DNA of 43,990 bases, from NCBI RefSeq assembly GCF_018006725.1, contig NZ_JAGMXV010000014.1, positions 1 to 43,990 on the forward strand, written 5' to 3'. Each line of letters begins with the position of its first letter. Position 1 is the stretch's first letter. The notes under the pieces are model-generated. The model made no database searches, had not been told where the DNA came from, and was given only the letters and a program-made list of their open reading frames with translations. Positions 8,556 to 25,975 of this stretch are shown here, one piece after another. The stretch is from Rhizorhabdus sp. (GTDB lineage: Bacteria; Pseudomonadota; Alphaproteobacteria; Sphingomonadales; Sphingomonadaceae). Made by a program: the position numbers and the translations under genes.

Positions 8556-9494
8556 GTGACGGCTGGTGATCATTCCCTATGCGGTTGGCGCGTGCGTAGC
8601 GAATGGCCGCTGCCCGAGCTGCCGCGTTGGGACGGCGACGATCGGCCCGTGGATGTGGACATCCGCGTCGGACATGTGCCGGCGGTGCTGCCCGGCACCG
8701 TGGCGGCGAATCCGCTCGTGCAGGTGAACGACCGGGGGTGGCTGCGCTATACGGTGCAGGACGTTGCCGACTATCTCGTCCGCGATGGCCGCGAGGTGAT
8801 CATCGATACCCGGCTTGCGCGCGGCGCGCCCGATGTCGCCCTGTTCCTGCTCGGGTCTGTCCTAGGTTTCCTGTCTCATCAACGAGGGCTGTTCCCGCTG
8901 CATGCGAGCTGTGTCGCCGTGGAGGGGCAGGCCATCGCGCTCGTCGGGCATTCCGGCGCGGGCAAGTCGACGATTGCCGCGCTTCTGCTGGCGGAGGGGG
9001 CTCGTCTGCTGTCGGATGACGTCACGGTGATCGACATCCACGCGCCTGGCGGCCCACTCGTGCTGCCGGGCTTTCCACGCCAGAAGCTGTGGCGCGACAC
9101 GCTCGACATGCTCTGCATGATCCCCGGTCGGCCGCTGCGCAGCACGGTTTCGCTAGAGAAATTCGATCGTTCGGTGGCCGAGCAGTTTCAGCCGGAACAG
9201 ATGCGGTTGGCTGGCATCTGCCAGCTCAACCGTAAGATGCGCGACGGCGACCTGCGCCTCGTGCCGCTGGGCGGCCTGCCAGCGGTCCGGATGCTCTATG
9301 AGAATGTCTACCGTCGCACCGCTGGTGGCCTGCTCGGCCTCTCCGAGCGCATGTTCCAGGACTGTGCCCGCCTTGCCGTGACGCTTTCTCGCTTGTGCCA
9401 AAAGGTGGGGAATGGCTCATCGATGGACGGATCATTTCCAAACCCGACCTATATGCCCGTCTCGACAGCGTGGTCATGGAGGACGATCTCCTGA
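8556..9494 (+). CDS. HprK-like serine kinase domain protein with aberrant C-terminus
   Basis: A 312-residue frame from GTG 8556, 2 bp after the previous stop. Residues 105-275 match the HPr-kinase/phosphorylase C-terminal fold: LHASCVAV, Walker A GHSGAGKST (about 133-141), LLSDDVTVID and PGFPRQKLW. Such stand-alone kinases occur in polysaccharide loci and also as lasso-peptide kinases that phosphorylate a C-terminal Ser. Homology seems to stop near nucleotide 9390 (ERMFQDCARLAVTLSR). The last 35 residues are an out-of-frame reading of the ATP-grasp sequence that follows. Roughly 25-30 native C-terminal residues therefore appear to be missing. Activity is uncertain. Confidence 0.7.
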   Translation: MTAGDHSLCGWRVRSEWPLPELPRWDGDDRPVDVDIRVGHVPAVLPGTVAANPLVQVNDRGWLRYTVQDVADYLVRDGREVIIDTRLARGAPDVALFLLGSVLGFLSHQRGLFPLHASCVAVEGQAIALVGHSGAGKSTIAALLLAEGARLLSDDVTVIDIHAPGGPLVLPGFPRQKLWRDTLDMLCMIPGRPLRSTVSLEKFDRSVAEQFQPEQMRLAGICQLNRKMRDGDLRLVPLGGLPAVRMLYENVYRRTAGGLLGLSERMFQDCARLAVTLSRLCQKVGNGSSMDGSFPNPTYMPVSTAWSWRTIS

Positions 9495-10003
9495 TCCAGG
9501 AGCGCCTGACGGCAGCTTCCGATCTGGCAGATCTCGCAGTAGCCGGCCGGGCGCCCGTCCTGCGGCTTGTCACCGCCCGGATGCCCGGCGCCGAGCCCTT
9601 CCTGCATTCCGCACTGCTGACCGTCGGTGTCCCCGACCGAAATCCAGCCCATTTTCTGGAAGGCGCGGTGCATGTGCCGGTCGACGGCGCGACGGGCCAG
9701 ATGCTGCGCGGGCTATCGCTCTCGCGGCCGGATGAGCGGCTAGAGCGGCTACCCTGGAACGCATCGGTTCTGACTGGGCGGCGGTTAACCGACTTCGACC
9801 GCGCGGTGGACGCTGCGCTGACCGCGATGCATGTGCTTCCACCGCTCCCCCTCGTTCACTGGGACGTGATCCTGACCAGTAGTGGGCCCGTGTTCCTCGA
9901 AGGCAACAGCAGCGGCAACTGGATCATCGCCAGTCTGCCGGGGCTGGAGGGGCAGGGGGCATGCGATCTCGCCGAGTTGCTCGCCCATTGGCGCCCGTGC
10001 TGA
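9395..10003 (+). pseudogene. ATP-grasp (sugar-transfer associated) C-terminal fragment
   Basis: The frame encodes 202 residues resembling the C-terminal half of sugar-transfer-associated ATP-grasp proteins. It shows LIQERL, APVLRLVTARM, a PVDGATGQML segment and a terminal LVHWDVILTSSGPVFLEGNSSGNW, where Asp, Glu and Asn are the expected Mg-ATP ligands. The family's N-terminal lobe, including the first ATP-binding half, is absent. The frame overlaps the HprK-like frame by 100 bp in another register. The first usable start is GTG 9395; ATG 9476 lies further in. It is best read as the 3' remnant of a gene that lost its 5' part, together with the end of the kinase gene, in one deletion. Confidence 0.65.
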
Positions 10004-10051: not shown

Positions 10052-11875
10052 CTATCGTCCCGCCAGTTCGCGTCCCACCGGATAGAGCAGGTAGCGTGCG
10101 TCATAATAGCGGGTGCGCGCGTAGAACCAGGCGAGGCGGGCCTGCGGGTCGGCGGCGAAGGCCGGGTCTTCGGCCAGCTTCTTCTCGAATGCGGCCTTCA
10201 GGGCGGGGTCGCGCTCGAGCATCGCGTCGGCCATCGGCGCGATGACATAGCCCTCGATATATTCGGTGCGCTGGAGGAGCGCGGGGAAGAAGCCCCAGGT
10301 GAAGAGCGAATCCTCGCCCTGCGGCTCGAGCAGCATCGTCGCCAGCGCGCCGAGCGGCTGGTCGGTCGGCACGCGCACCGATCCGGCGGGGTAGGTCTCC
10401 TGCCGCCGCTCATGCGCGAAGCCGGCGGCGTGAACCATGACGCGGCCTTCGGTCGGGGTCGCGTCGAGCTTGGGATCTGCCACGCGGATCATGTCGACGT
10501 CGACCGTGCGCGGGGCGTCGATCACCTCCATCTGGACCCCGTGGCGGCGCAGCCGGTCGATCACCTCTCGGTCGACCGCCGACACCCAATAGGCGGCGGG
10601 CGGAGTGACTGTCACGTCGGGCTGCGAGCCGTAGAGTGGCACGACCGCTGCCGGCGCGGGCTTGGCGAGCCATCGCACTTCCTCGGCACCCGAAGCGGGG
10701 GAGGTGTAGTAATCGGCCTGCATCGGCAGGAAATCGATCGAGCGGACCGGATCGGCCTTGCTCTTCCAGGCGACCACCTCGGGGCCGGTCGCCTTGCGGT
10801 CGGCGGCGATCGCCGCCTTGAGCTTGGCGCCGTCGCTGGCGAGCGTCTTCAGCGTCTGTTCGAGCAGCACATAGGTGCCGAGCACGCGGCGGCCGAAGGG
10901 CTTGAGCGAGTGGTTCTCGACCAGCACCGCCGGCATGTGCCGCAGGTCGCCATAACCGTGCGAGAAGCGCGACGGGAAGGCGGGCAGCATCAATCCCTTT
11001 TCGGGATGGCGATCGTCGGCGGCGAGGATCAGCGGGCCGGGGACATGGCCTGCGCCCTTCAGCCCGGCATTGGCCTGGCTGCGATAGACGCCCTCGAACC
11101 AGCGGTTGATCGCGGGCGACTTGGTATATTGCGGCTCCTGCCAGCCGAAGGTGATGTCATATTGGAAGTCGAGCCCGTCCGAGACGTGCAGGTCCATGTA
11201 GAGCGTCGGGTCGAACCGGTTGAACAGCCCCAGCATCGCCTGCATCTCGGGCGCGTCGGCCTTCATGTAGTCGCGGTTGAGGTTGATGTTCTGCGCGGTG
11301 GTTCGCCAGCCCTGTGAAACCGGCCCGCGCTGGTTGGGGCGGTTATAGGCCGAGCTGCGCTCATGCCCGTCGAGGTTGAAGATCGGCACGAACACGAAGT
11401 TGACGCGGTCGAGCAGCCCATCCTTGCCGCGCAGCGCGATGTCGCGGAGCAGCATCATGCCGGCATCCTTGCCGTCGATCTCGCCCGAATGGATGCCAGC
11501 CTGCACCAGCAGCAGCGGCTTGGCCGGATCGAGCGTGGCGCCGTCCTTGCTGGCGACGACCAGCAGCATGTCGCGACCCTGCGGCGTCTTGGCGAAGCGT
11601 TCGACGCGAATCAGCGGCGAGGCGGCGGCGAGGCGGTCGAGATAGGCAGCCGTCTCGGCGTAGGTCGCCGTCGCGGTCAGGCTGCTCTTCTCGGCCGGGG
11701 TAATCCACGGGTCGGACGGCTTGACCGCCAGCTTCTCGCTCTTGCCGTGCCATGCCGGGACCGGAGGCAGGGGCGCCCGATCGGGGTCCGCTACAGGTGC
11801 AACTGCCATGGCGGCGCCCGCCAGGGTCGAGGCGGCGACGAGGAGCGTGAGCAGGAAGCGCTGGTTGGTCTTCAT
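10052..11875 (-). CDS. secreted M14 family zinc carboxypeptidase
   Basis: A 607-residue protein with a Sec signal peptide (MKTNQRFLLTLLVAASTLAGAAMA). Zinc ligands are visible as H129-S-G-E132 and H229 (YMDLHVSD). The substrate-binding Asn-Arg pair appears as NLNRDY (about 197-202), and the general-base Glu lies in VLVENHSLKPF. M14 peptidases remove C-terminal residues or cleave peptide and amino-acyl amides; this one should act in the periplasm or outside. The upstream in-frame ATG at 11941 would spoil the signal peptide, so ATG 11875 is chosen. It lies downstream of the TonB receptor on the same strand, separated by a strong terminator-like hairpin, so it probably has its own promoter. Confidence 0.88.
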   Translation of the reverse strand: MKTNQRFLLTLLVAASTLAGAAMAVAPVADPDRAPLPPVPAWHGKSEKLAVKPSDPWITPAEKSSLTATATYAETAAYLDRLAAASPLIRVERFAKTPQGRDMLLVVASKDGATLDPAKPLLLVQAGIHSGEIDGKDAGMMLLRDIALRGKDGLLDRVNFVFVPIFNLDGHERSSAYNRPNQRGPVSQGWRTTAQNINLNRDYMKADAPEMQAMLGLFNRFDPTLYMDLHVSDGLDFQYDITFGWQEPQYTKSPAINRWFEGVYRSQANAGLKGAGHVPGPLILAADDRHPEKGLMLPAFPSRFSHGYGDLRHMPAVLVENHSLKPFGRRVLGTYVLLEQTLKTLASDGAKLKAAIAADRKATGPEVVAWKSKADPVRSIDFLPMQADYYTSPASGAEEVRWLAKPAPAAVVPLYGSQPDVTVTPPAAYWVSAVDREVIDRLRRHGVQMEVIDAPRTVDVDMIRVADPKLDATPTEGRVMVHAAGFAHERRQETYPAGSVRVPTDQPLGALATMLLEPQGEDSLFTWGFFPALLQRTEYIEGYVIAPMADAMLERDPALKAAFEKKLAEDPAFAADPQARLAWFYARTRYYDARYLLYPVGRELAGR

Positions 11876-11994
11876 CGGCGTCGTGGTCCTTCGGGCAAGC
11901 TGGCGGAGCGGAGCCGCTATCGATGTCTGCACGCATAGCATGACGGGGCTATGCGGGCGGAAGAGGGTAATGGTGGGACGCTATGGTGGGAGCC

Positions 11995-12040
11995 CCAAAC
12001 GAATCCGGCCCGCCGCCGCTCGAAGGCGACGACGGGCCGG
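11995..12040 (-). terminator. strong hairpin after the TonB receptor gene
   Basis: Arms 12005-12019 and 12026-12040 can form a 15-bp stem (two G-U pairs on the minus strand) with a 6-nt loop. The structure starts 19 nt after the receptor stop. The minus-strand sequence after it is ATTCGTTTGG, a weak T-run, so a rho-independent terminator is likely. Confidence 0.65.
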
Positions 12041-12058
12041 CATGGGCATGTCAGTGGA

Positions 12059-14287
12059 TCAGAACTTCCACGTCACGCGGGTGCCGATGTTGCGTACCGA
12101 CGGCTCGACATAGAGGCCGCCAGCGAACGCCTTTTCATAGGCATTGGTGAAGTACTTGTTCTTGAACACATTCTCCACGAAGGCCTGCACCTCGACATTG
12201 CCACGGGTGAAGCCGGCGCGCAGGTTCCACTGGTTGAATGCGGGAACCTTGTACGGCCAGATGTTGTACAGGAGCGCCGCCTTGTCCGAGTAGATCGAGC
12301 TGCGATAGACCCACTCCGCACGGACGAAGCTGTCGAAGCCCTCCGCCGGGGTGAAGTTATATTCGCCGAAGCCGCTCAGCGTCCACTTGGGCGAGTTCGG
12401 CATGCGCCGGCCCGACAGGTCGATGATCTGGCCATCGATGAAGGCGTTCTCATATTTGCGGAACTCGGCGCTGAGATAGCCGACGGTGCCACCGACCTGC
12501 AGGTCGCGGGTCAGCTTGAACGTCGCATCCGCCTCGGCGCCGTAGCTGCGGGCCTTGGCCGCATTCTCGATGCCCGAGATGAAGGTGATGTTGCCGGCTG
12601 CGTCGGCGCGGGCCACTGCGAATTCGGTCTGGAGGTTCTTCCAGTCCATGTAGAAGGCTGCGACGTTGAACAGCAGGCGGCGATCGAAGGCCTGCGTCTT
12701 GAAGCCGACCTCATAGTTCCACAGGCTTTCCGGCGCATAGGAGGTGTCATTGATCAACGGGTTGATCTGGACGCCGCCAGCCTTGAAGCCGCGCGAGACG
12801 GTTGCGTAGAGGTTGGTGCGGTCGGCCAGCTCATAGGCGACGGTCACGCGCGGCGAGAAGTTGTTGAAGCTCGCGCTGTCGTCGACCACGCCGTTGACGC
12901 CGCCAGTCGAGGTGTTGAGCTGGGCGACGGTCACCTTCTCATGGGTGTAGCGGCCGCCGAGCGTCACCGACAAAGCGTCGTTCAGCTTGTACACGCCTTC
13001 GCCGAAGATCGCCCAGCTTTCGGACTTGCCGCGGTTCTGGGTCGAGGTGATCTGCAGATCGGCGGGCAGGCCGAACGGGTTGTCCGCGCCGGTGAAGGTG
13101 AACTGGTTGATGTTGCCCTTGTCGGTCGCATAGAGCGCGCCGATGGTCCAGCTCAGCGGGCTGCCATTGTCGTTCGACTGCAGGCGGACTTCCTGGCTGA
13201 ACGAGGAGCGGCTGATCGGCTTGGTCTCATAATAATAGTCCTTGCTCGACCCGTCGATGTCACCCTGCAGGAACTGCTTGGAGTGGATATAGCCGGTGAT
13301 GCTGGTCAGCGTCGCGAAGTCGAAGTCCCACTTCGCGCGGCCGGTGAAGTAATAGAACTCCGTGCCGATCTTCTGCGGGCGGTTGAAGTTCACCTTGTTG
13401 TCGTTGCGCGGGAAGAAGCCCACGCCGTCCGGATCGGCGACCGGGTTGGTCACGCCCGGATAGACGACCTGCAGCGCGGTATAGCCGAGCACGCCCGAGG
13501 GCACGCCGACGCGCATGCCGACATTTTCCTTGGTGTAGACGCCGGTCAGGTCGACCGTCAGACGGTCGGTCGGCGTCAGGCGCAGCATCGCCTTGCCATA
13601 TTTATAGTCGGAGTCGTTGCCGCCGCCGATCGGGTTGATGTTCTTGATGTTGCCGTCGCTCTTGGACAGGCGGCCGACCACGCGGATCGCGGCCTTGTCG
13701 GTGACGATCGGCACGTTGACCACGCCGTGCACGTCGAGCGTATCGAAGCTCGAATAGCCGATCGAGCCTTCGCCTTCGAACTCCTGGGTGTTCGCCTGCT
13801 TGGTCGTGATGTTGATCGCGCCGCCGACCGAGTTGCGGCCGAAATAGGTGCCCTGCGGACCGCGCAGCACTTCGATCCGGTCGATGTCGACGATCTCGGG
13901 GTTCACCGTGCCGGTCGAGACGTTGAACTCGTCGATGTAGAAGCCGAAGGTGCTCGTCCTCGGGATCGCGTCGGCGCTCAGCTGGTTGGTGATGCCGCGG
14001 ATGCTGATTTCCTTGCGGTCGCGCGCACCGGTCGAGGTGAAGCTGACGTTCGGCGTCTGCGAGAAATAATCGTCGATGCCCTGGACGTTCTGGCGCGTGA
14101 TCGCCTTGTCGTCGAACACGGTCAGGCTGATCGGCACGTCGGTGGCGAGCTGCTGGCGACGCTGGGCGGTGACGACGATGTCGCCATCGGCCGCATTGGC
14201 TGTGGCGTCGGCAGCGGTCTGCGCCATGACGGGCGCGCCAAAGGATATCCCGGCCAGCAGCAGCTGGACGAAGGCAGAGCGTTTCAT
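12059..14287 (-). CDS. TonB-dependent outer-membrane receptor
   Basis: A 742-residue receptor. A signal peptide ends near residue 22 (APVMAQ) and is followed by the TonB-box-like DIVVTAQRR. The plug domain shows DVPISLTVF, ISIRGI and IEVLRGPQGTYFGRNSVGGAINI. The 22-strand barrel ends in the terminal aromatic residue (VTWKF), as outer-membrane insertion requires. Sphingomonads hold many such receptors for siderophores, vitamins and aromatic or plant-derived compounds. The substrate cannot be read from the sequence. The NTF2-like gene upstream and the Rieske/EthD/GST genes nearby suggest an organic substrate. It needs TonB, and a tonB gene lies at 42247-42882. Confidence 0.93.
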   Translation of the reverse strand: MKRSAFVQLLLAGISFGAPVMAQTAADATANAADGDIVVTAQRRQQLATDVPISLTVFDDKAITRQNVQGIDDYFSQTPNVSFTSTGARDRKEISIRGITNQLSADAIPRTSTFGFYIDEFNVSTGTVNPEIVDIDRIEVLRGPQGTYFGRNSVGGAINITTKQANTQEFEGEGSIGYSSFDTLDVHGVVNVPIVTDKAAIRVVGRLSKSDGNIKNINPIGGGNDSDYKYGKAMLRLTPTDRLTVDLTGVYTKENVGMRVGVPSGVLGYTALQVVYPGVTNPVADPDGVGFFPRNDNKVNFNRPQKIGTEFYYFTGRAKWDFDFATLTSITGYIHSKQFLQGDIDGSSKDYYYETKPISRSSFSQEVRLQSNDNGSPLSWTIGALYATDKGNINQFTFTGADNPFGLPADLQITSTQNRGKSESWAIFGEGVYKLNDALSVTLGGRYTHEKVTVAQLNTSTGGVNGVVDDSASFNNFSPRVTVAYELADRTNLYATVSRGFKAGGVQINPLINDTSYAPESLWNYEVGFKTQAFDRRLLFNVAAFYMDWKNLQTEFAVARADAAGNITFISGIENAAKARSYGAEADATFKLTRDLQVGGTVGYLSAEFRKYENAFIDGQIIDLSGRRMPNSPKWTLSGFGEYNFTPAEGFDSFVRAEWVYRSSIYSDKAALLYNIWPYKVPAFNQWNLRAGFTRGNVEVQAFVENVFKNKYFTNAYEKAFAGGLYVEPSVRNIGTRVTWKF

Positions 14288-18273: not shown

Positions 18274-19689
18274 TCAGAACTCGTGCCAGTCCTCGGCGAC
18301 TGCGACGGCTGCCGCCGCCCTGCTGCTGACGGCCGGCATGCGCACAGGCCGGGGGGTGGAGGCAGGGGCAACCCAGGCTTGCGGCTTGCGGTGACGCGGC
18401 GCGCCGACGTTGAAGCGGGCGACCGTACCCATCAGGCTGCCTGCTTCGTCGTTGAGTGAGGAGGCTGCTGCGGTCGCCTGCTCGACCATCGCGGCGTTCT
18501 GCTGCGTGACCTGATCGAGTTCGAGTACGACGGCGTTGACCTGACCCAAACTCGCTGACTGGGACTCCGCCGCCCGGGCGATCGTCGAGACCAGCGCGCT
18601 GACATCAGCGATCCTGTTGCTGATCGTTTCGAGCGAGGCGCCCGCCGCCGATACCAGCTGCACGCCATTCGACACTTCCGCAACGCTGCCGTTGATGCGG
18701 CCTGCGATGTCCTTCGCCGCTTCGGCTGCCCGCTGTGCCAAGGCGCGCACCTCGCTCGCGACGACCGCGAAGCCGCGACCCGAATCTCCGGCGCGAGCCG
18801 CCTCGACGCCGGCATTGAGCGCGAGCAAGTTGGTTTGGAAAGCGATGCCGTCGATCACGTTGATGATTTCGACGATCTCGCGCGACGAGCCCTGAATGCT
18901 GTTCATCGCCTCGATCGCATCGCGCGCGATCCTGCTGCCCTGGATCGCCTCGTTGCGGGCCTGTTCAACCGCCACGTCTGCGCGGGCGGCGTCGGCGGAG
19001 GTCGCTGCGACGGTGGATGTGATGAGGCCTACCGACGCCGACGCCTCTTCAAGATTGGCTGCCTGCATTTCGGTGCGGCGTGCAAGCTCGTCCGACGCCT
19101 TCTGAATTTCCTGCGCCCCGGTGTGCACACCCTGCGTCGCGTTGCTCGTCGCTGCAAGCGCAGCATCCAGCGACGCGATGGCAGCATTGAAATGCTCACG
19201 CAGGTCTTCATAATCCGCCGGGAAGATCTCGTTGAGCCTGATCGTCAGATCGCCTTTGGCCAGCGCCCCCAAGGCATCGGCCAGCGCGCCGATCACCGTA
19301 CGTTGCGCTTCCCGGGCGATCATCTCGGCCTTGGCGCTGGCTTGCACCTGCACGGCATTGTCGCGGAAAGTCGCCATGGCTTTTGTCATGCGCCCGACAC
19401 AGTCGCGATGATCCGTGAATTGGACTTCGCTGTTGAGATCACCGGCTGCCAGCCCCTCCATGCGCACCACGGTGGTGACATAAGGATCGCAGATCAGTTT
19501 CTTGTACAGAAAGGTGAGCGAAACCGTCGCGAGCCCGACCGCTCCCATCATGGCGAGTTGCGCCAGCGGGGGCGTCGCTCCAGACAGAGTCACCGCGCCC
19601 ATTCCCGCTACGGCCAGAAAGACATAGCTGCCTGCCATGACATTGAATTTGGACCGTATCGGCGCATCCGCCACAAACCATCGGATCAT
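18274..19689 (-). CDS. methyl-accepting chemotaxis-type transducer without sensor domain
   Basis: A 471-residue transducer. Two closely spaced membrane helices (about 17-36 and 42-62) leave almost no periplasmic loop. A HAMP domain follows ([16 protein letters not shown]...), then a second HAMP-like stretch ([26 protein letters not shown]). The signalling hairpin has the tip motif [26 protein letters not shown]. The last residues, DWHEF, resemble the C-terminal W-x-x-F pentapeptide that tethers CheR/CheB. The ATG at 19689 has GAGGAG 6 nt upstream; the frame runs upstream to 19803 but without a comparable ribosome binding site. The input is probably cytoplasmic or through the membrane. No other che genes are nearby. 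Confidence 0.88.
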
Positions 19690-19982
19690 ATCCAGCTCCT
19701 CGAATATGCCCACGCTATCCGATAGTTTCCGGTGGTTAATGTAATGCCTTGAAGCGGCTAAGTAATGTTCCCAGACCCTTCGACTTTCCGGTAAGTTTTT
19801 CATTGGAATCCGTCCGGATTTCTTTCCGGTGCCTCGCCTGGCCGGCTGTGGACTGCCCCCTGCCGAAGGATGGGATGCAGCGCCGTCGCGATGTCCGCTC
19901 GCCGCATGGTTGCGTCGAGCCGAAAGACTTCATCGAACATCATCCCATTTTCAATCGCACGGCTTTTCGATATCCGGACGTC

Positions 19983-20279
19983 ATGCCCGAGGAAGCCGAG
20001 ACCGCAGCCCTTCATAGCGTGCTCAGCCGGAATCCGGACTTCATGTGGTCGGAGGTCGACGGTGAAATCGTGATGCTCGACGTCGCGAACGGATCCTATA
20101 TCAGCTTCGACCACGTCGCTTCAGAGATATGGCGACTCATCGAAACGCCACTGGACGTGGGGGCTCTCGTCGACCGGCTATGCCTGAAATATGATGCCGA
20201 CCGATCGATCATCGAGAGCGATGCCATGCGGTTTCTCGACCGGGCGATCGCCCGCGATGTCATCCGTGTCGAAGGTTGA
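19983..20279 (+). CDS. PqqD-like RiPP recognition element protein (lasso B1 type)
   Basis: A protein of about 98 residues with the PqqD winged-helix fold. Key stretches are WSEVDGEIVMLDVANGSYISFDHVASEIWRLI, then PLDVGALVDRLCLKYD and the C-terminal helix with FLDRAIARDVIRVEG. In RiPP pathways this domain binds the leader of the precursor and hands it to the modifying enzymes. The start is uncertain: ATG 19983 gives the usual length, while ATG 19875 has a better ribosome binding site (GAAGGATGGG) and would add 36 residues. It overlaps the sulfotransferase gene by 23 bp and shares an operon with the cyclase. Its proposed partner peptides are encoded at 24433-24838. Confidence 0.8.
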   Translation: MPEEAETAALHSVLSRNPDFMWSEVDGEIVMLDVANGSYISFDHVASEIWRLIETPLDVGALVDRLCLKYDADRSIIESDAMRFLDRAIARDVIRVEG

Positions 20280-21240
20280 GCGCGAGACGGTCGTCCGCCC
20301 GATCCCGGTCAGGGCCTTCCCCATCGGCGAAGGACTGGAAATCGTAGAGATCGACATTGCCGGGCTGCGCAGCGATTATCCGTTCCAGCTCGACCAGATC
20401 GCGGCAGCCCGCGCCTTGCAGCGCCCACTGTCCAGCCGGCGGATTCCACCGCTCGACCTTGCGGACGCATCGGCTCCCGACGGGCTGATCTTCCATGCGG
20501 GCAGATGCGGATCGACGCTGCTTGCCGTCGCCCTGGCACGCCTGCAGTGGAGCCGGGTCGTTTCGGAGCCCGGCGCACTGAATGACGTGCTGAGCGAGAC
20601 GGGGTTCTGGCGCTTCCTTCCATGGCCGCGGCGTGAGGCGGCGCTGCGTCATCTGATGCACCTCCTGCCGGCCGGGTTTGGCGAAGATCCCGGCCCGCTC
20701 ATCGTGAAGATGTCGAGCTGGACGACGAGGGAGGCAGTGCGATTTCAGACCATGTGGCCGGGCGTCCCCAAGCTCTATCTGTACCGCGAGCCGCTCGCTG
20801 CACTTGCCTCCTTCGCCGCCCGGCCGCCGATTTGGGGGCGGCATGCTGGTGCGGAGGGCGCATGGAATTTTATCGCTCGGACAGTGGCGGATGGGATGAG
20901 CGTCATCGCCGAAATGGTCGAGGGCGATCCGATGGGCGACTGGATGCTCGTGAACTATGCCGAGCTCGCGGATTCCGTGCCTGCCATCTGCGGTCATTTC
21001 GCGATGAGCCCGGCAGACGATTTGGTAGCGCGCTTCAAGGTCCTGGCCCGCACGAACGTGAAGGAGGCCGACCGAGGCAAGGCCGCCGCGCCCCGGATCG
21101 ACCCCTGCGATCCTGCGCTCGAAGGCATCGTCGAGGCGGTGGTGCGCGAATCTTATAATCGGCTGGAAGCACTGCGTCTGGTGCAGAAGGCGCGGCCGTC
21201 CTTCGGCGATGACGCCGTTTGCGGCAGGAGCCGGTCATGA
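20257..21240 (+). CDS. sulfotransferase family protein of the RiPP operon
   Basis: A protein of about 327 residues. The PAPS 5'-phosphosulfate-binding loop is visible as FHAGRCGSTLLAVALARL (about 79-96). The 3'-phosphate-binding segment is VPKLYLYREPLAALASFA (about 170-187). Starts at ATG 20257 or GTG 20266 both overlap the PqqD-like gene; the stop overlaps the cyclase start (ATGA), so the three genes are translationally coupled. Sulfotransferases move sulfate from PAPS to a hydroxyl. In this operon the conserved C-terminal Ser of the precursor cores is an attractive acceptor by analogy with Ser phosphorylation of paeninodin-type lasso peptides. That assignment is an inference. Confidence 0.8.
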   Translation: MSSVSKVERETVVRPIPVRAFPIGEGLEIVEIDIAGLRSDYPFQLDQIAAARALQRPLSSRRIPPLDLADASAPDGLIFHAGRCGSTLLAVALARLQWSRVVSEPGALNDVLSETGFWRFLPWPRREAALRHLMHLLPAGFGEDPGPLIVKMSSWTTREAVRFQTMWPGVPKLYLYREPLAALASFAARPPIWGRHAGAEGAWNFIARTVADGMSVIAEMVEGDPMGDWMLVNYAELADSVPAICGHFAMSPADDLVARFKVLARTNVKEADRGKAAAPRIDPCDPALEGIVEAVVRESYNRLEALRLVQKARPSFGDDAVCGRSRS

Positions 21241-23177
21241 GTGCGATCTACGGAGCCTGGCATATCGACGGTCGACCTGGAGCGCATGCCGGGTGCGAAC
21301 GGATGCAGCAGGTGGCCCGCGCTTTTGGTCCCGATCAGGCGCGCACTTGGGATGGTGGAGAGGTCGCGCTGGGGGCTGCGTTGCTGCGGCTCCTGCCGGA
21401 AGATCGTTTCGATCGGCAGCCATTGCTCGGCGCGGGCGGGATAGTGACTCTCGTGGCCGACATTCGTCTCGACAATCGCGGCGAGCTCGGCGCAGCGCTC
21501 GCCCTGTCGCCCCCGGACATGGCTCGCAGAAGCGACGCGGATGTGCTTCTTGCCGCCTATGAGCGGTGGGGGGAGGCCGCCATCGACCGTCTCGTCGGCG
21601 ACTTTGCCTTTGCGGTCTGGGATGCGCGCGATCGCTCGCTTCTGATCGCCCGGGACCATGGCGACGCCCGTCCGCTCCATTATCACCGTGGCAAGGGCTG
21701 GTTCGCCTTTGCGTCCATGCCCAGCCTGTTGCTGTCGCTGCCAGCAATTGGGCGCGGGCTCGACACCGTCCGGCTCGCGCGCTGGCAGTTGCTGCAGTCC
21801 GACGGGGGAGGGCGGAGCTTCTACGAACAGATTTCGAGCGTCGAACCGGGGCATCTGGTGCGGGTGCACGCCGATGGCCGGGTGGATGTGCGGCGCCATT
21901 GGCGACCGGAAGCCATTTCGCCTCTGCGCCTGTCGCGGCCGGAAGACTATGTCGAGGGGCTGCGATCGGTTCTGGACCAGGCCGTCGAAGCACGTCTGCG
22001 CAGCGTGCGCGGTAATGCCCTTCTGCTCAGCGGCGGGCTCGACAGCGCCGCCGTCGCCACCAGCGCCGCGCCGATCCTCGCGGCCCGCGGGGAGCGGCTG
22101 ACCGCTATAACCAACGTGCCGCGATCCGACGTTCCCCGGCAATATATGGCGGACGCCCGCCTCGACGAAGGACCTTTTGCGGCGTTGGTTGCAGCGCGCC
22201 ACCCGAATATCGACCATGAATTCGTGCATCTGGCCGATGCCGACCTGCTGGCAGAGGTCGAGCGGCTGACCGGCTATGCCGATCAGCCGGTGATGAATCC
22301 GCTCAACACGGCCTGGTTGTGTCTGGGCTATGCGCTGGCGGCGAGACGCGGCAATTCGACGGTCCTCGTCGGGACCAAAGGCAATTTCGGGATCAGCTAT
22401 ACCGGCCAGCACGCCTTGTCGGAGATGGCGGAACGGGCGCGCTGGGGAAAGCTCCTCGCGGAAACGGGACGCCTCCGCCGGAACGGCTATGCGGAAAGGG
22501 CGGAGTATCGCCTCTACACAGTCGTTCGGAGGGCACTGACGTCACGCCTGCCGGGGGCAATCAGGCATCTCCGGAGGCATCCGATCTATGCCGATCTCTT
22601 TCCCATCGCGCCGGCCGCGCTCCAGAAACTGGGCTATGATGGTCCGGACGATCCGCGGCTCGCCGATGCGCTCTCCCCCCGCCTTCTGTCCTGGCAGGAC
22701 TGGTTCCGGCATGCGTGGGGTCGAACCGACGCCGCGCCGATGAACTCCGCCATTCGCGCGGCCTTCCGCATCGATCGGCGCGATCCGACCGGCGATCGAC
22801 GCGTGCTCGAATTTTGTCTCGCCACGCCGGCGGACATCTTTCTGCGCGAGGGGCAGCCGAAATGGCTGTATCGAAAGGCATTCGGAAGCCGTGTTCCGGA
22901 GCCGATCTGGGAGGACCGGCACAGGGGCCTGGCCGCATCCGACTGGAAGAGCGTGCAGTTGCAGGCGCAGCGCCCTCTGGTCGACGAGCTTCAGCGGCAA
23001 TCGGCGACCCGGGCGTGTCACGAGGTGGTCGACGTCGACACGTTGCTTGGTCTGGCGCAGACGCTGGAGCAGGCCGATCCGGCCGATCGCGCCTCCTATT
23101 ACCGCTATCACCTGAAGCTCATGCGCGGGCTTGCGACGGGCCTGTTCACGCGCAAAGCCAGTGGCAGCAACGCCTGA
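21237..23177 (+). CDS. asparagine-synthetase-like ATP-dependent macrolactam cyclase (lasso C type)
   Basis: A 646-residue protein. The N-terminal region is a class II amidotransferase-like fold (residues 1-190) that lacks the Cys2 nucleophile (it begins MSAIYG), so it should not hydrolyse glutamine. The C-terminal synthetase domain has the PP-loop SGGLDSA (about 264-270), which adenylates a carboxylate. Lasso cyclases use this to activate the Asp or Glu side chain at core position 7-9 and close the ring on the N-terminal amine. The length suits lasso C proteins (about 600 residues). Exopolysaccharide-type asparagine synthetases share this architecture, so the lasso role rests on the adjacent PqqD gene and the precursors. 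Confidence 0.82.
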   Translation: MSAIYGAWHIDGRPGAHAGCERMQQVARAFGPDQARTWDGGEVALGAALLRLLPEDRFDRQPLLGAGGIVTLVADIRLDNRGELGAALALSPPDMARRSDADVLLAAYERWGEAAIDRLVGDFAFAVWDARDRSLLIARDHGDARPLHYHRGKGWFAFASMPSLLLSLPAIGRGLDTVRLARWQLLQSDGGGRSFYEQISSVEPGHLVRVHADGRVDVRRHWRPEAISPLRLSRPEDYVEGLRSVLDQAVEARLRSVRGNALLLSGGLDSAAVATSAAPILAARGERLTAITNVPRSDVPRQYMADARLDEGPFAALVAARHPNIDHEFVHLADADLLAEVERLTGYADQPVMNPLNTAWLCLGYALAARRGNSTVLVGTKGNFGISYTGQHALSEMAERARWGKLLAETGRLRRNGYAERAEYRLYTVVRRALTSRLPGAIRHLRRHPIYADLFPIAPAALQKLGYDGPDDPRLADALSPRLLSWQDWFRHAWGRTDAAPMNSAIRAAFRIDRRDPTGDRRVLEFCLATPADIFLREGQPKWLYRKAFGSRVPEPIWEDRHRGLAASDWKSVQLQAQRPLVDELQRQSATRACHEVVDVDTLLGLAQTLEQADPADRASYYRYHLKLMRGLATGLFTRKASGSNA

Positions 23178-23209
23178 ACTTTGTTGGATTGCAGCGGAGC
23201 TTGCTTCGT

Positions 23210-24367
23210 TCAGTCTTCCAGAACGAACAGCAGCGACTTGCGTATCAACCCGGACAATGCCCGTTCCGTGGTTTCTGCTTCCGGTCCTTGCAGCAGGGCA
23301 TCGACGCGGCTTCCTCCGCTTTCGAGCAGCCTGACGAGCAGCGCGCGTTCGGCAGAATCCAGGACAATCCGGATCCCGTCCGCCTCGATCTCCGCGCCGC
23401 CCTCGGAGGGGAGGTCGGGACAGCGCCGCAATGATGGACAGACCCAGCTTCGCGGCGCGAGCGGACCGAAGAAGCCCAGGTTCAACGGTCTGAACGGGGC
23501 CGCCCGGCGATCCCGATCCGCAAGCATGTCGCCAAGGTCCAGTTGATCGACCAGCGCATGGAGTGCCTGCCTGATCCCCGTCGACCGCCGTGCGGCGGCC
23601 GCGTCCGGCTCCTGCGGGGATACATCCTCGCGAAAGAGGATGTCCTGAATGCCGCGCTCGCGCAGCCAGGAAAGGCTGTCGCAGGCCTTGAGAGTATGGA
23701 TGCCGATCGTCAGATGCAGCGACCGCTCTCCGACGACCGCCGCCTGATGGACCTCGCCACGCGGCAGGTAGAGCAGGTCACCCGGCTGGAGTTCCTCTAC
23801 CCACGAAGGCTGTTCGATCCTCGCAATCCCGCCCTTGAGGGGTCGGGCCTCCGCGCCCCCATAGCCTTTCCACGCCTTCCTGCCGTCGATCTGCAATATC
23901 AGGACGTCATGCTCGTCGGAGTGGGGTGGCAGGGCCCCGCCGCGGGTGAAGCTGGCATAGGCATTGACCTGCATGTCTGCGCGCAATTCGCGCTCGAGCG
24001 CGGCGGTGAGGGCTGCGATCTTCGAACTCAGGTTGTGGAGTCCGATGAGTTGTATGCTCAGCCCCTGATCGCATAGAAGGTGCAGGGCTTCGGCGAGCAG
24101 CACGCGCTCGCCGCTGTCCCTTCTCCTGCTCACGAGATCGATGGGAACTTCCCGTCCTGCCCGCATCAGTCTGACGCGCCCGGACATGAGACTGTCCATG
24201 GAGACGCAGCGGTTCAGTTCCGCCCATGGGAAGAAGTGCGCGAAATCGTCGCGCGACGTGCGCAGCTTCAGGGGCCGTTTTTCTGCAAATGCCGCGAGGA
24301 AGGAATCGACTTTCTCGGGCTGCAGCAGCGCCGATAATCCGTCGATCATCGCCTCATTGTCCGCCAT
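23210..24367 (-). CDS. JmjC/cupin Fe(II)/2-oxoglutarate oxygenase of the RiPP locus
   Basis: A 385-residue protein of the ribosomal-oxygenase-like cupin group. The iron-binding triad is H149-S-D151 (PPHSDEHDVLILQIDG) and H207 (LPRGEVHQAAV). The sheet residues around Lys164-Trp166 match the usual 2-oxoglutarate region. A C-terminal winged-helix-like part (about 300-385) follows, as in YcfD/RoxA. It ends 32 bp from the cyclase stop, tail to tail. It lies directly downstream of the two precursor genes on the same strand and is probably co-transcribed with them. Hydroxylation of a precursor residue such as a core Asp or Asn is an inference. A ribosomal-protein target cannot be excluded. Confidence 0.82.
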   Translation of the reverse strand: MADNEAMIDGLSALLQPEKVDSFLAAFAEKRPLKLRTSRDDFAHFFPWAELNRCVSMDSLMSGRVRLMRAGREVPIDLVSRRRDSGERVLLAEALHLLCDQGLSIQLIGLHNLSSKIAALTAALERELRADMQVNAYASFTRGGALPPHSDEHDVLILQIDGRKAWKGYGGAEARPLKGGIARIEQPSWVEELQPGDLLYLPRGEVHQAAVVGERSLHLTIGIHTLKACDSLSWLRERGIQDILFREDVSPQEPDAAAARRSTGIRQALHALVDQLDLGDMLADRDRRAAPFRPLNLGFFGPLAPRSWVCPSLRRCPDLPSEGGAEIEADGIRIVLDSAERALLVRLLESGGSRVDALLQGPEAETTERALSGLIRKSLLFVLED

Positions 24368-24432
24368 GTCGGGCTGGCCCTCTGTTATCGATCACAAAGG
24401 GCATTATAGGGCACTATAGAGAATGTTGGCGG

Positions 24433-24595
24433 TCAGGACAGCTCGTTGGTATCGGTATCGCCAATCGTGCCGGCGCCCGCCCGCGTAAGCGCGACCGCAT
24501 CCACCTCGGTCATCTGTGGCGGAATCCAGGGGAGTTTGGTTGTGTCGACCTAAGGTCCCGACAGGGTGCAAGTCCTGCTTCACCTGCTTTGTCAT
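24433..24595 (-). pseudogene. second RiPP precursor gene, frameshifted between leader start and core
   Basis: The ATG at 24595 begins MTKQVKQDLHPVGTLG, close to the intact precursor (MTKHEKQ...). The homologous leader and core, PWIPPQMTEVDAVALT then RAGAGTIGDTDTNELS and TGA at 24433, lie in a different frame. The two parts are 163 nt end to end, one base more than a whole number of codons. A TAG precedes the core frame, and no start codon lies between it and the leader motif. The predicted core would be AGAGTIGDTDTNELS. Either the gene is inactivated, the assembly has a 1-nt error, or a slip restores the frame. The conserved core argues for recent loss or an error. Confidence 0.7.
24491..24521. 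repeat. 31-bp direct repeat, copy 1 (leader-coding)
   Basis: This stretch is identical to 24744-24774, 253 bp away. On the minus strand it encodes the PPQMTEVDAVA part of both precursor leaders. The repeat therefore reflects duplication of the precursor gene. Confidence 0.9.
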
Positions 24596-24634
24596 GTACC
24601 GTTCCAATTTTGACTCTGCTGCCTGATTCTGCCA

Positions 24635-24652
24635 GCGAGCAGCTTGGCTCGC
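24635..24652 (-). other. hairpin between the two precursor genes
   Basis: GCGAGC and GCTCGC form a 6-bp stem with a 6-nt loop. It lies between the intact precursor stop and the start of the second copy. It may protect or attenuate the transcript and keep precursor levels above those of the enzymes. Confidence 0.4.
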
Positions 24653-24667
24653 CGCGTAGCAGCTTAC

Positions 24668-24683
24668 TCGGCCTGAAGGCCGG
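24668..24683 (-). other. hairpin directly after the intact precursor stop
   Basis: On the minus strand CGGCC-TTCA-GGCCG forms a compact stem-loop beginning about 3 nt after the precursor stop. A stem-loop after the A gene is common in RiPP operons, where it limits read-through into downstream genes. No T-run follows, so it is not a strong terminator. Confidence 0.45.
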
Positions 24684-24685
24684 GA

Positions 24686-24838
24686 TCAGGATACCCGATT
24701 GGGGTCTTGATCGGCTACCGCATCGCCGCCCGCCAGCGTAGCTGCGACCGCATCCACCTCGGTCATCTGTGGCGTAGCCCAAGGCTGCTTGGACGCATCG
24801 GGCTGGGCCACGTCCGCTTGTTTTTCGTGCTTCGTCAT
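24686..24838 (-). CDS. lasso-like RiPP precursor peptide (50 residues)
   Basis: The ATG at 24838 has AGGGGA 6 nt upstream. It encodes a 50-residue peptide starting MTKHEKQADVAQPDASKQ, with stop TGA at 24686-24688. The leader contains W20-A-T-P23-Q-M25, then D29 and T34. This fits the lasso leader pattern (aromatic-x-x-Pro-x-hydrophobic ... Thr at -2). Cleavage after Leu35 gives the 15-residue core AGGDAVADQDPNRVS, with Ala1 and Asp8 placed for an 8-residue macrolactam ring and a C-terminal Ser. A frameshifted paralogue downstream keeps Ala1, Gly2, Asp8, Asp10, Asn12 and Ser15. The PqqD-like and cyclase genes are 1.5-5 kb away on the opposite strand. The gene is too short for routine annotation and may be missed. 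Confidence 0.8.
   Translation of the reverse strand: MTKHEKQADVAQPDASKQPWATPQMTEVDAVAATLAGGDAVADQDPNRVS
24744..24774. repeat. 31-bp direct repeat, copy 2 (leader-coding)
   Basis: This is identical to 24491-24521 and lies inside the intact precursor gene, covering the conserved leader residues before the Thr-containing junction. Confidence 0.9.
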
Positions 24839-24921: not shown

Positions 24922-25713
24922 CTACGACGCGGTCAGGCTCTCGAGTAGCCGGATGGAACCGCGCGGCGCCGCCTTGCCGCCCGGATCATAGGCCGGCGAC
25001 AGGATGGCAAGGATCCGGGGCAGCGAGAAGCGCAGGAGGCGGCGGCGATAGGTCCGTTCCTCGGCGTTCAGCCGCGCACGGCTTGCCGCATCGAGCGCCG
25101 CCGTGTCGCAGGCGATCAGGTGGTCTGAAACCCGCTTGCCCCATTGACCGAGGTGTCGCGCCGCCAAAGCGAAACCCCGGACGCGGCTCAGATAGTCGCC
25201 ACCCAATTGCCGGTGGACGTCGAAGCAGACCGAGCGATGCTCGAACTCCTCCGCCAGATGCCATTGCCACAGACGAACCACGCGTGCGTCGGCACCTTTC
25301 AGAAGATCGTCGACATGCCCGAAGAAGAACTCGGCCTGGATCAGGCCCAGCGACTCGAACCCTTCGCAATAGGCGGCGCAGTCGCGGAGCGACCGTGTTT
25401 TGAGCATCGCCTCATATTCCGCCGTCAACTCCGCGTCGAACGCCCGCAGTTCGGGGTAGCGCGCCCACATCGTTTTGTTGAACAGGCGATGGTAGCGATA
25501 ATGATTACCTTCCTGGGACATGAAAATCTCGATGTCGCGCCGCGTGGCGGGGGCCGCGACCTCGCTCAGGGCGCGCGCCATCACCTTGTTCAGGAAGATC
25601 TCGACCGCCGGGATGATCAGTGATCCCGCGTTGACGATCTGGGCGAAGGCGGTGTTCGGGGCCCAGTGGGGCAGGGCGTCCTGAAAGACGATCCTCGGAT
25701 TACGCGCCTGCAT
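24922..25713 (-). CDS. metal-dependent hydrolase family protein (PF10118 type)
   Basis: A 263-residue, largely helical protein resembling the 'predicted metal-dependent hydrolase' group (PF10118/COG3687). Candidate metal-binding residues recur in SQEGNHYRYHRLFN, AEFFFGHVDD and WHLAEEFEHRSVCFDVH. The spacing of the E-x-x-H and H-x-x-E pairs recalls a ferritin-like di-metal four-helix bundle. The ATG at 25713 has GGAGAG upstream; the in-frame ATG at 25743 has no good site. Substrate and reaction are unknown. It precedes the precursor operon on the same strand, but the 84-bp gap holding an operator-like repeat suggests separate control. Confidence 0.75.
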   Translation of the reverse strand: MQARNPRIVFQDALPHWAPNTAFAQIVNAGSLIIPAVEIFLNKVMARALSEVAAPATRRDIEIFMSQEGNHYRYHRLFNKTMWARYPELRAFDAELTAEYEAMLKTRSLRDCAAYCEGFESLGLIQAEFFFGHVDDLLKGADARVVRLWQWHLAEEFEHRSVCFDVHRQLGGDYLSRVRGFALAARHLGQWGKRVSDHLIACDTAALDAASRARLNAEERTYRRRLLRFSLPRILAILSPAYDPGGKAAPRGSIRLLESLTAS

Positions 25714-25899
25714 CGGTGCTCTCCATGCACGGCCGCATCGCATCCTCTCCTATGTCTAAGCCGGCTTTCTGCCGGTCCTGAGAGCAAGATGTACGCGCGT
25801 TCGGAGGAGCAAGGGAGAGGGATTCGCAGGATGGTCGCGCATAGCCCCGTGACGAGCTGCCAGGTTCTGCGCATCTTTGGAATTTGTGGGAAAAGGAAA

Positions 25900-25975
25900 T
25901 GGTGGAGCCGAGGGGGATCGAACCCCTGACCTCTGCAATGCCATTGCAGCGCTCTCCCAGCTGAGCTACGGCCCC
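25900..25975 (-). tRNA. tRNA-Ala (anticodon GGC)
   Basis: A 76-nt cloverleaf on the minus strand: acceptor GGGGCCG, D-arm AGCTCAGCTGGGAGAGC, anticodon stem-loop CTGCA-ATGGCAT-TGCAG, T-arm GGGGTTCGATCCCC and encoded CCA. The loop reads GGC, the alanine anticodon for GCC/GCU codons. It stands alone, not in an rRNA operon. Confidence 0.96.

What the first reader, a model, noticed from the sequence alone, without database searches (positions are those of the whole stretch)
19983..24838. Uncharacterised lasso-like RiPP locus with two unannotated precursor genes
Two opposed operons form one system: PqqD-like RRE, sulfotransferase and asparagine-synthetase-like cyclase on one strand; two small precursor genes and a JmjC oxygenase on the other. 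They meet tail to tail with 32 bp between stops. The precursors are short, easily missed, and carry lasso-type leader and core signatures. The gene mix (sulfotransferase plus 2OG oxygenase with cyclase and RRE) is one I do not recognise as a described cluster type.
Basis: partly seen in the sequence, partly recalled or inferred. Interest (0 to 1): 0.93.

Follow-up and report, generated by a model that had tools for sequence, protein, structure and literature searches.

The report
Lasso peptide cluster borrowing its protease
A sphingomonad gene cluster encodes a short lasso-type peptide precursor, its recognition protein, its ring-closing enzyme, a sulfotransferase and an oxygenase but no protease to cut off the leader; that cut is likely made by the genome's one lasso-type protease, which is encoded elsewhere and would serve several such clusters.

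Summary
The genes are as described: PqqD-like RRE, sulfotransferase and lasso-type cyclase (+), 32 bp, then JmjC oxygenase and a 50-aa precursor (-). The second "precursor" is a broken copy (frame shifted, in-frame stop, no start). The working precursor has the lasso leader (W-x-x-P, Thr at -2) and the core AGGDAVADQDPNRVS (Ala1, Asp8, C-terminal Ser). The core is identical in Rhizorhabdus phycosphaerae; Sphingomonas sp. R647 has the same system with two open precursor frames. The cyclase scores as lasso-type, not exopolysaccharide-type. The genome has one PF13471 gene, on a contig without a cyclase hit; it falls in a clade with B2s that sit beside relatives of the window's cyclase. Among 149 family genomes, all 11 with a lasso-type cyclase unlinked to B2 carry a B2 elsewhere, against 35 of the 121 without such a cyclase. 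Best reading: a dispersed lasso system, B2 acting in trans, with hydroxylase and sulfotransferase tailoring. Product, threading and modifications are predictions. New variant of a known kind.

The parts
19983..20279 (+). PqqD-like RRE (lasso B1), 98 aa
   Evidence: PF05402 E 4e-15; best NCBIfam hit lasso_PqqD NF033536 E 6e-16, below its cut-off
20257..21240 (+). Sulfotransferase, 327 aa, P-loop HAGRCGSTLL; start overlaps the PqqD end
   Evidence: no Pfam hit; relatives PF13469; model pLDDT 89, best PDB matches tyrosylprotein sulfotransferases E 3e-7
21237..23177 (+). Lasso-type cyclase (C), asparagine-synthetase-like, 646 aa; start overlaps the sulfotransferase stop (ATGA)
   Evidence: NF033535 lasso cyclase 284 bits (cut-off 525), Asn_synthase 2e-27; no Cys at position 2 (sequence)
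23210..24367 (-). JmjC_2 (ROX-type) Fe(II)/2-oxoglutarate oxygenase, 385 aa; HxD...H triad invariant in 31 aligned sequences
   Evidence: PF08007 E 1e-18; alignment; model pLDDT 92, best PDB matches MINA53/NO66/YcfD
24686..24838 (-). Precursor peptide (A), 50 aa with stop codon; leader 24734-24838, core 24689-24733 = AGGDAVADQDPNRVS
   Evidence: ortholog with identical core in L040; two related precursors in L229
24433..24607 (-). Broken second precursor copy: leader and core in different frames, in-frame TAG before the core frame, no start codon before the leader motif
24922..25743 (-). Flanking gene, predicted metal-dependent hydrolase PF10118 (not assigned to the system)
   Evidence: conserved at the same place in L040

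Best explanation
The locus encodes a lasso-type precursor, a PqqD-like RRE, a lasso-type cyclase, a sulfotransferase and a JmjC oxygenase but no leader peptidase, and is predicted to make a short Ala1-Asp8 macrolactam (likely lasso-folded) whose leader is probably removed in trans by the one unlinked B2 protease found in the same genome. Predicted course: the RRE binds the W-x-x-P leader motif; the JmjC enzyme likely hydroxylates a core residue (Asn12 is my favoured site) and the sulfotransferase likely sulfates the C-terminal Ser15, the only hydroxyl residue of the core, or the new hydroxyl; the shared B2 would cut after the leader's Thr-Leu; the cyclase would join Ala1 to Asp8. Shown here: the genes, their families, the absence of B2 from the cluster and its presence elsewhere. 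Inferred: every chemical step, their order, the threading and the sharing.
For: Precursor pattern and C-terminal Ser far above chance near cyclases. Core identical in R. phycosphaerae with 0 nucleotide changes in 45, while the cyclase has dS 0.35. Sphingomonas sp. R647 (L229) holds two precursors, JmjC, cyclase, sulfotransferase and PqqD in the same tail-to-tail layout. One PF13471 gene in the window genome, on a contig without a cyclase hit, and none within the fetched flanks of its 5 lasso-type cyclases; in the one-contig genome of R. phycosphaerae 7 of 8 lasso-type cyclase loci lack a B2 in about 6 kb either side, and an 82% identical B2 stands 715 kb from the ortholog of the window cluster. 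The 13 stand-alone B2s keep the Cys and His motifs (read by eye); that of the window genome nests with linked B2s of L105, L107, L113, L133 and L137 (10-row clade, 99), and four of those five loci have their cyclase in the window cyclase's 18-row clade. Of 149 family genomes the 28 with a cyclase of 200 bits or more all have a B2, against 35 of 121 others; 11 of 11 where cyclase and B2 are unlinked (Fisher p 4e-6).
Against: No chemistry was observed. The cyclase scores below NCBI's lasso cut-off. Two of 16 genomes picked for a B2-less or truncated cyclase locus have no PF13471 gene (two acidobacterial MAGs). In R647 both B2s lie beside other cyclases, and so do those of 4 of the 11 unlinked family genomes, so a stand-alone B2 is not universal. 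The 200-bit threshold was set after seeing the data, linkage was read off coordinates, and one search scored only 8 candidates per genome. Six of the 12 B2-less lasso-type loci of the window genome and R. phycosphaerae also lack a recognisable PqqD. G000 is a 462-contig assembly with 7% contamination.
Confidence: 0.6

Rival explanations
1. Lasso-type cluster in which the leader is removed by some other, unrecognised peptidase, and the lone B2 does something else.
For: Two of 16 genomes with a B2-less or truncated cyclase locus have no PF13471 gene. Unlinked proteases of other families mature lanthipeptides (PMC8960859, passages). Next to the lone B2 stands a Hydrolase_4/S15-like alpha/beta hydrolase gene, with a 74% identical one in R. 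phycosphaerae; a zinc carboxypeptidase (M14) gene lies 8 kb upstream of the window cluster.
Against: The lone B2 is nested among B2s that sit beside lasso-type cyclases, keeps its catalytic motifs, and B2 co-occurs with unlinked cyclases.
Confidence: 0.2
2. A macrolactam RiPP made by the cyclase that is not threaded (branched cyclic), or made without B2.
For: Core is only 15 residues, with a 7-residue tail lacking bulky aromatic plugs; related cores have 13. A paper title states that pseudomycoidin can be made without leader and leader peptidase (seen only in the reference list of PMC13352647).
Against: T(-2), a small residue 1 and Asp/Glu at 8 or 9 recur as in lasso precursors.
Confidence: 0.15
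3. A decaying cluster: once a two-precursor lasso system, now losing function (broken second precursor, no own B2, no transporter seen).
For: Second copy broken in both species; no ABC transporter among the window genes that were family-searched (not all window genes were searched).
Against: dN/dS 0.17-0.27 for the four enzymes (dS over 1 for PqqD and sulfotransferase, so rough there) and an unchanged core; metal triad and P-loop present.
Confidence: 0.1
4. Exopolysaccharide-type asparagine-synthetase locus with chance small ORFs.
For: AsnB-like enzymes occur in exopolysaccharide clusters (TIGR03108 also hits, 123 bits).
Against: Lasso model scores 284 bits; PqqD and precursor present.
Confidence: 0.02

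Closest known systems
Lasso peptide clusters with an HPr-kinase homolog (paeninodin, SyanA/SyanK of Sphingobium yanoikuyae)
   Same: Lasso precursor with a conserved C-terminal Ser, which the kinase phosphorylates, with B1, B2 and C genes (PMC8498205, PMC9266682, passages); W/Y-x-x-P leader, Thr(-2) and terminal Ser in the relatives found here
   Different: No kinase and no B2 in this cluster; a sulfotransferase and a JmjC oxygenase instead; B2 unlinked
Canucin A cluster (CanE, Fe/2OG Asp beta-hydroxylase)
   Same: A 2OG oxygenase tailors a lasso precursor (PMC8498205, passages)
   Different: The oxygenase here is JmjC_2/ROX-type (MINA53/NO66/YcfD fold). CanE's family was not compared here.
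Ribosomal oxygenases MINA53, NO66, YcfD
   Same: Fold and HxD...H metal triad
   Different: Encoded in a RiPP cluster; substrate predicted to be the precursor, not ribosomal protein
Tyrosylprotein sulfotransferases
   Same: Best PDB matches of the sulfotransferase model
   Different: Low TM-scores (about 0.45), 15-19% identity; the core has no Tyr
Lanthipeptides matured by unclustered proteases
   Same: Leader protease encoded outside the cluster, found by co-occurrence (PMC8960859, passages)
   Different: There other protease families and lanthipeptides; here the lasso B2 family itself

Membership tests
Lasso peptide biosynthetic cluster | Precursor with aromatic-x-x-P leader motif and Thr at -2 | tested here: met
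   PWATPQM and T-L before the core; W instead of the usual Y
Lasso peptide biosynthetic cluster | Small residue 1 and Asp/Glu acceptor at position 7-9 | tested here: met
   Ala1, Asp8; the pattern used requires Asp/Glu at 7-9
Lasso peptide biosynthetic cluster | RRE (B1) | tested here: met
   PqqD PF05402 E 4e-15
Lasso peptide biosynthetic cluster | Lasso cyclase (C) | tested here: inconclusive
   Best NCBIfam model NF033535, E 2e-84, but 284 bits is below its curated cut-off of 525
Lasso peptide biosynthetic cluster | B2 leader peptidase in the cluster | tested here: not met
   No PF13471 in the window; one in the genome on another contig. So filed as a variant with B2 in trans, not as a canonical cluster
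Lasso peptide biosynthetic cluster | Threaded macrolactam product | not testable with these tools
   needs MS/NMR
HPr-kinase-type (paeninodin-like) lasso subgroup | HPr-kinase homolog in the cluster | tested here: not met
   the only window hit is a stray one at 8568-9491; the R647 relative has one in its cluster
XrtA/PEP-CTERM exopolysaccharide amidotransferase | Match to TIGR03108 above cut-off | tested here: not met
   123 bits against cut-off 817; lasso model 284
Ribosomal oxygenase (JmjC_2) | PF08007 domain with HxD...H triad | tested here: met
PAPS sulfotransferase | Sulfotransferase fold with PAPS-binding P-loop | tested here: met
   fold; invariant H..RCGSTL stretch in 28 sequences; PAPS binding and activity not tested

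The most novel reading that the evidence does not exclude
Hub-and-spoke lasso system: one stand-alone B2 protease serves at least five dispersed clusters in one genome, each with its own cyclase, and the window's spoke makes a hydroxylated (Asn12) and sulfated lasso peptide, a modification pair not seen for lasso peptides in the passages and listings searched.
Probability: 0.35. Interest if true: 0.78.

Novelty: new variant of a known kind. Interest (0 to 1): 0.62.

Why it matters
If one B2 works in trans, a search that expects precursor, B2 and cyclase genes side by side misses many lasso-type loci (five cyclase loci in this genome, eight in R. phycosphaerae), and B2 specificity, not linkage, sets which leaders are cut. 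It also gives a ready set of natural leaders for one protease and a candidate oxygenase plus sulfotransferase pair acting on a lasso precursor. The clean test is a single gene deletion.

Tried and rejected
Rejected: exopolysaccharide role of the cyclase; two working precursors; the no-Pfam-hit protein as something other than a sulfotransferase.

Searches for an unlinked lasso leader peptidase in print brought no lasso example in the rows listed (7 of 8 and 10 of 37 papers). The paeninodin kinase paper PMC4919450 is not held.

Against or weaker than hoped: precursors were not recognised near some cyclases (L035 and L042 among the window genome's and R. phycosphaerae's; 44 of 128 loci have a pattern ORF ending in Ser). 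A further Sphingomonadaceae group (L218-L226) has W-x-x-P small ORFs without a clear T(-2). Sulfotransferase and oxygenase genes go together in 6 of 9 cyclase loci against 16 of 119 (p 8e-4), but the models were seeded from these loci and window and L040 are near copies; the three misses (L100, L161, L162) have a longer sulfotransferase; L051 and L208, with both genes, were outside that count because no strong cyclase was found in the stretch. Asn12 also occurs in L043, which has no sulfotransferase of this type.
Full report
What is there. On the + strand lie three overlapping genes: a PqqD-like RRE (19983-20279), a 327-aa sulfotransferase (20257-21240) and a 646-aa asparagine-synthetase-like cyclase (21237-23177). 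After exactly 32 bp come, on the - strand, a JmjC_2 oxygenase (23210-24367) and a 50-aa precursor (24686-24838). A protein of unknown source (P0003) carries the leader of the second copy joined to the core of the first, which suggests that tandem copies have recombined somewhere.

Lasso-type. The cyclase's best NCBIfam model is the lasso cyclase (284 bits; exopolysaccharide amidotransferase 123 bits; both below cut-off). The precursor reads ...PWATPQMTEVDAVAATL / AGGDAVADQDPNRVS: W-x-x-P leader motif, Thr at -2, Ala1, Asp8. A pattern built on these features is found in 67 of 7393 small ORFs (25-110 aa) within 3 kb of the cyclase in 128 loci, and in 0 of 2417 small ORFs read in other frames of the cyclase genes; 52 of the 67 end in Ser against 10.6% of the small ORFs there. 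The pattern was written after precursors had been seen, some of the 67 look like chance, and only 44 of 128 loci have a pattern ORF ending in Ser. The core AGGPGTTDSTILS is identical in R. phycosphaerae (L041) and Blastomonas sp. AAP53 (L108).

Relatives. The closest is G012, whose precursor (P0002) is listed under Rhizorhabdus phycosphaerae on a contig of the same 4,327,794 bases. Its cyclase is 90% and its JmjC 89% identical, with an unchanged core; PqqD and sulfotransferase are only 55-57% identical. dS is 0.35 (cyclase), 0.31 (JmjC), 1.15 (PqqD), 1.25 (sulfotransferase), 1.28 (upstream chemotaxis-receptor gene) and 0.15 (downstream gene), so a recombination edge probably lies near the cyclase start. 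Sphingomonas sp. R647 (L229) has the whole system in the same layout plus an HPr-kinase-like gene, with two precursors whose cores resemble those of the window, AGGAVSADQDPNQPS and AGEGTVGDLDSNDV.

The missing protease. Lasso leaders are cut by B2 (PF13471). Of 50 named relative loci with about 8 kb on each side of the cyclase, 39 have a B2 within 8 kb and 11 do not (one of the 11, L130, is the same genome as G009). The window cluster has none. The window's genome has five lasso-type cyclases (C451, C336, C250, C192, C453); a sixth hit, C405, is left out because it scores as an ordinary asparagine synthase (E 2e-101, against 2e-27 for the window's cyclase) and no precursor was found beside it. 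It has one PF13471 gene, on C76, a contig without a cyclase hit. R. phycosphaerae, on one contig, has eight lasso-type cyclases (a ninth hit, at 1572275, is left out as the counterpart of C405); one (L045) has a weak B2 near it, seven have none within about 6 kb, and an 82% identical B2 stands alone, 715 kb from the ortholog of the window cluster. Of 16 genomes picked because they hold a B2-less or truncated cyclase locus, 14 have a PF13471 gene, some of them beside another cyclase, and 2 acidobacterial MAGs have none. In 149 genomes of the family, the 28 with a cyclase of 200 bits or more (a threshold set after seeing the data; 8 candidates scored per genome) all have a B2, against 35 of the other 121. 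Read off the coordinates, 16 have it within 10 kb, 11 do not, and 1 (G134, short contigs) cannot be judged. Of the 11, seven (G000, G089, G110, G114, G130, G138, G144) have a B2 with no cyclase found in the fetched stretch around it (19 kb for six, 13 kb for G000), and four (G015, G024, G141, G148) have it beside another cyclase. Eleven of 11 against 35 of 121 gives Fisher p 4e-6; seven of seven gives 3e-4. In the tree of 85 B2s the stand-alone label of 13 changes six times, four of them forced by well-supported branches, so linkage changed more than once. The window genome's B2 groups with stand-alone ones of R. phycosphaerae, Oleisolibacter, Ferrovibrio and Sphingomonas sp. Root720 and with five linked ones (L105, L107, L113, L133, L137), support 99 in a quick tree. 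The cyclases of L105, L107, L113 and L137 fall in the window cyclase's 18-row clade (support 94, FastTree).

Tailoring. The sulfotransferase model (pLDDT 89) matches sulfotransferases, tyrosylprotein sulfotransferases first (E 3e-7, TM 0.45). The core has no Tyr or Thr and one Ser, the C-terminal Ser15, the residue that kinases phosphorylate in related lasso precursors (PMC8498205, PMC9266682, passages). The JmjC model (pLDDT 92) matches the ribosomal oxygenases MINA53, NO66 and YcfD, and its HxD...H triad is invariant in 31 sequences. Of 11 loci with a strong hit to this sulfotransferase model, eight have a 2OG oxygenase gene (window, L040, L046, L051, L208, L225, L229, L236) and three with a longer sulfotransferase have none recognised (L100, L161, L162); no cyclase was found in the L051 stretch and only a weak one in L208. 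Asn stands at position 12 of the core in the window and L040, in L046, in L236 and in one of the two L229 precursors; L051 has His at that distance from the end, the second L229 core lacks the terminal Ser, no precursor was recognised in L225, and L043 has Asn12 without this sulfotransferase. Asn12 as the oxidised site is therefore a guess from few cases.

What is shown and what is not. Shown: genes, families, conservation, the absence of B2 in the cluster and its place elsewhere. Inferred: cutting in trans, cyclisation Ala1-Asp8, hydroxylation, sulfation, threading. In print: a sulfotransferase gene in Firmicutes lasso clusters is mentioned without function (PMC8498205, passage); lasso plus JmjC gave two papers, of which one was looked into by passages and concerns JmjC fused to RRE-like domains, with bacterial homologs in RiPP-like contexts (PMC12710340), and the other was seen only in the listing. 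The searches cover open-access papers only.

Noticed in passing
window 8568-10003 (+): A lone HPr-kinase-like gene (Hpr_kinase_C E 1.5e-6) followed by an overlapping fragment of a sugar-transfer ATP-grasp (PF14397), beside genes that in R. phycosphaerae (L047) flank a full lasso-type cluster: probably the relic of another lasso cluster.
   Followed up: partly
window 18274-24367 vs L040: dS drops from about 1.2 (upstream gene, PqqD, sulfotransferase) to 0.3 (cyclase, JmjC): a probable recombination edge inside the cluster.
   Followed up: partly
L038 328-3946; L049 2880-5668: JmjC lasso-type clusters of two genomes sit beside carbamoyltransferase and P450 genes, with a methyltransferase in L038.
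   Followed up: partly
L203-L207, L218-L226: A Sphingomonadaceae group with stand-alone B2 (in L203-L206 beside an acyl-CoA dehydrogenase gene) and unlinked PqqD-cyclase loci whose small W-x-x-P ORFs lack a clear Thr(-2) and often an Asp/Glu acceptor.
   Followed up: partly
L041, L098, L108, L115, L124: Predicted cores of only 13 residues with Asp8: from recall, shorter than known lasso peptides if threaded.
   Followed up: no
P0033, P0034: Relatives of the sulfotransferase fused to an Asp/Asn beta-hydroxylase domain (PF05118), consistent with paired hydroxylation and sulfation.
   Followed up: no
L051: JmjC, sulfotransferase, HPr-kinase-like and PqqD genes with a lasso-like small ORF and an ABC transporter, but no cyclase found in the 14 kb fetched.
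   Followed up: partly
window 10052-14287 (-): Zinc carboxypeptidase (M14) and TonB-dependent receptor genes upstream of the cluster; any link to the peptide is untested.
   Followed up: no
window 25900-25975 (-): tRNA-Ala close to the cluster's end, a possible integration site; not tested.
   Followed up: no
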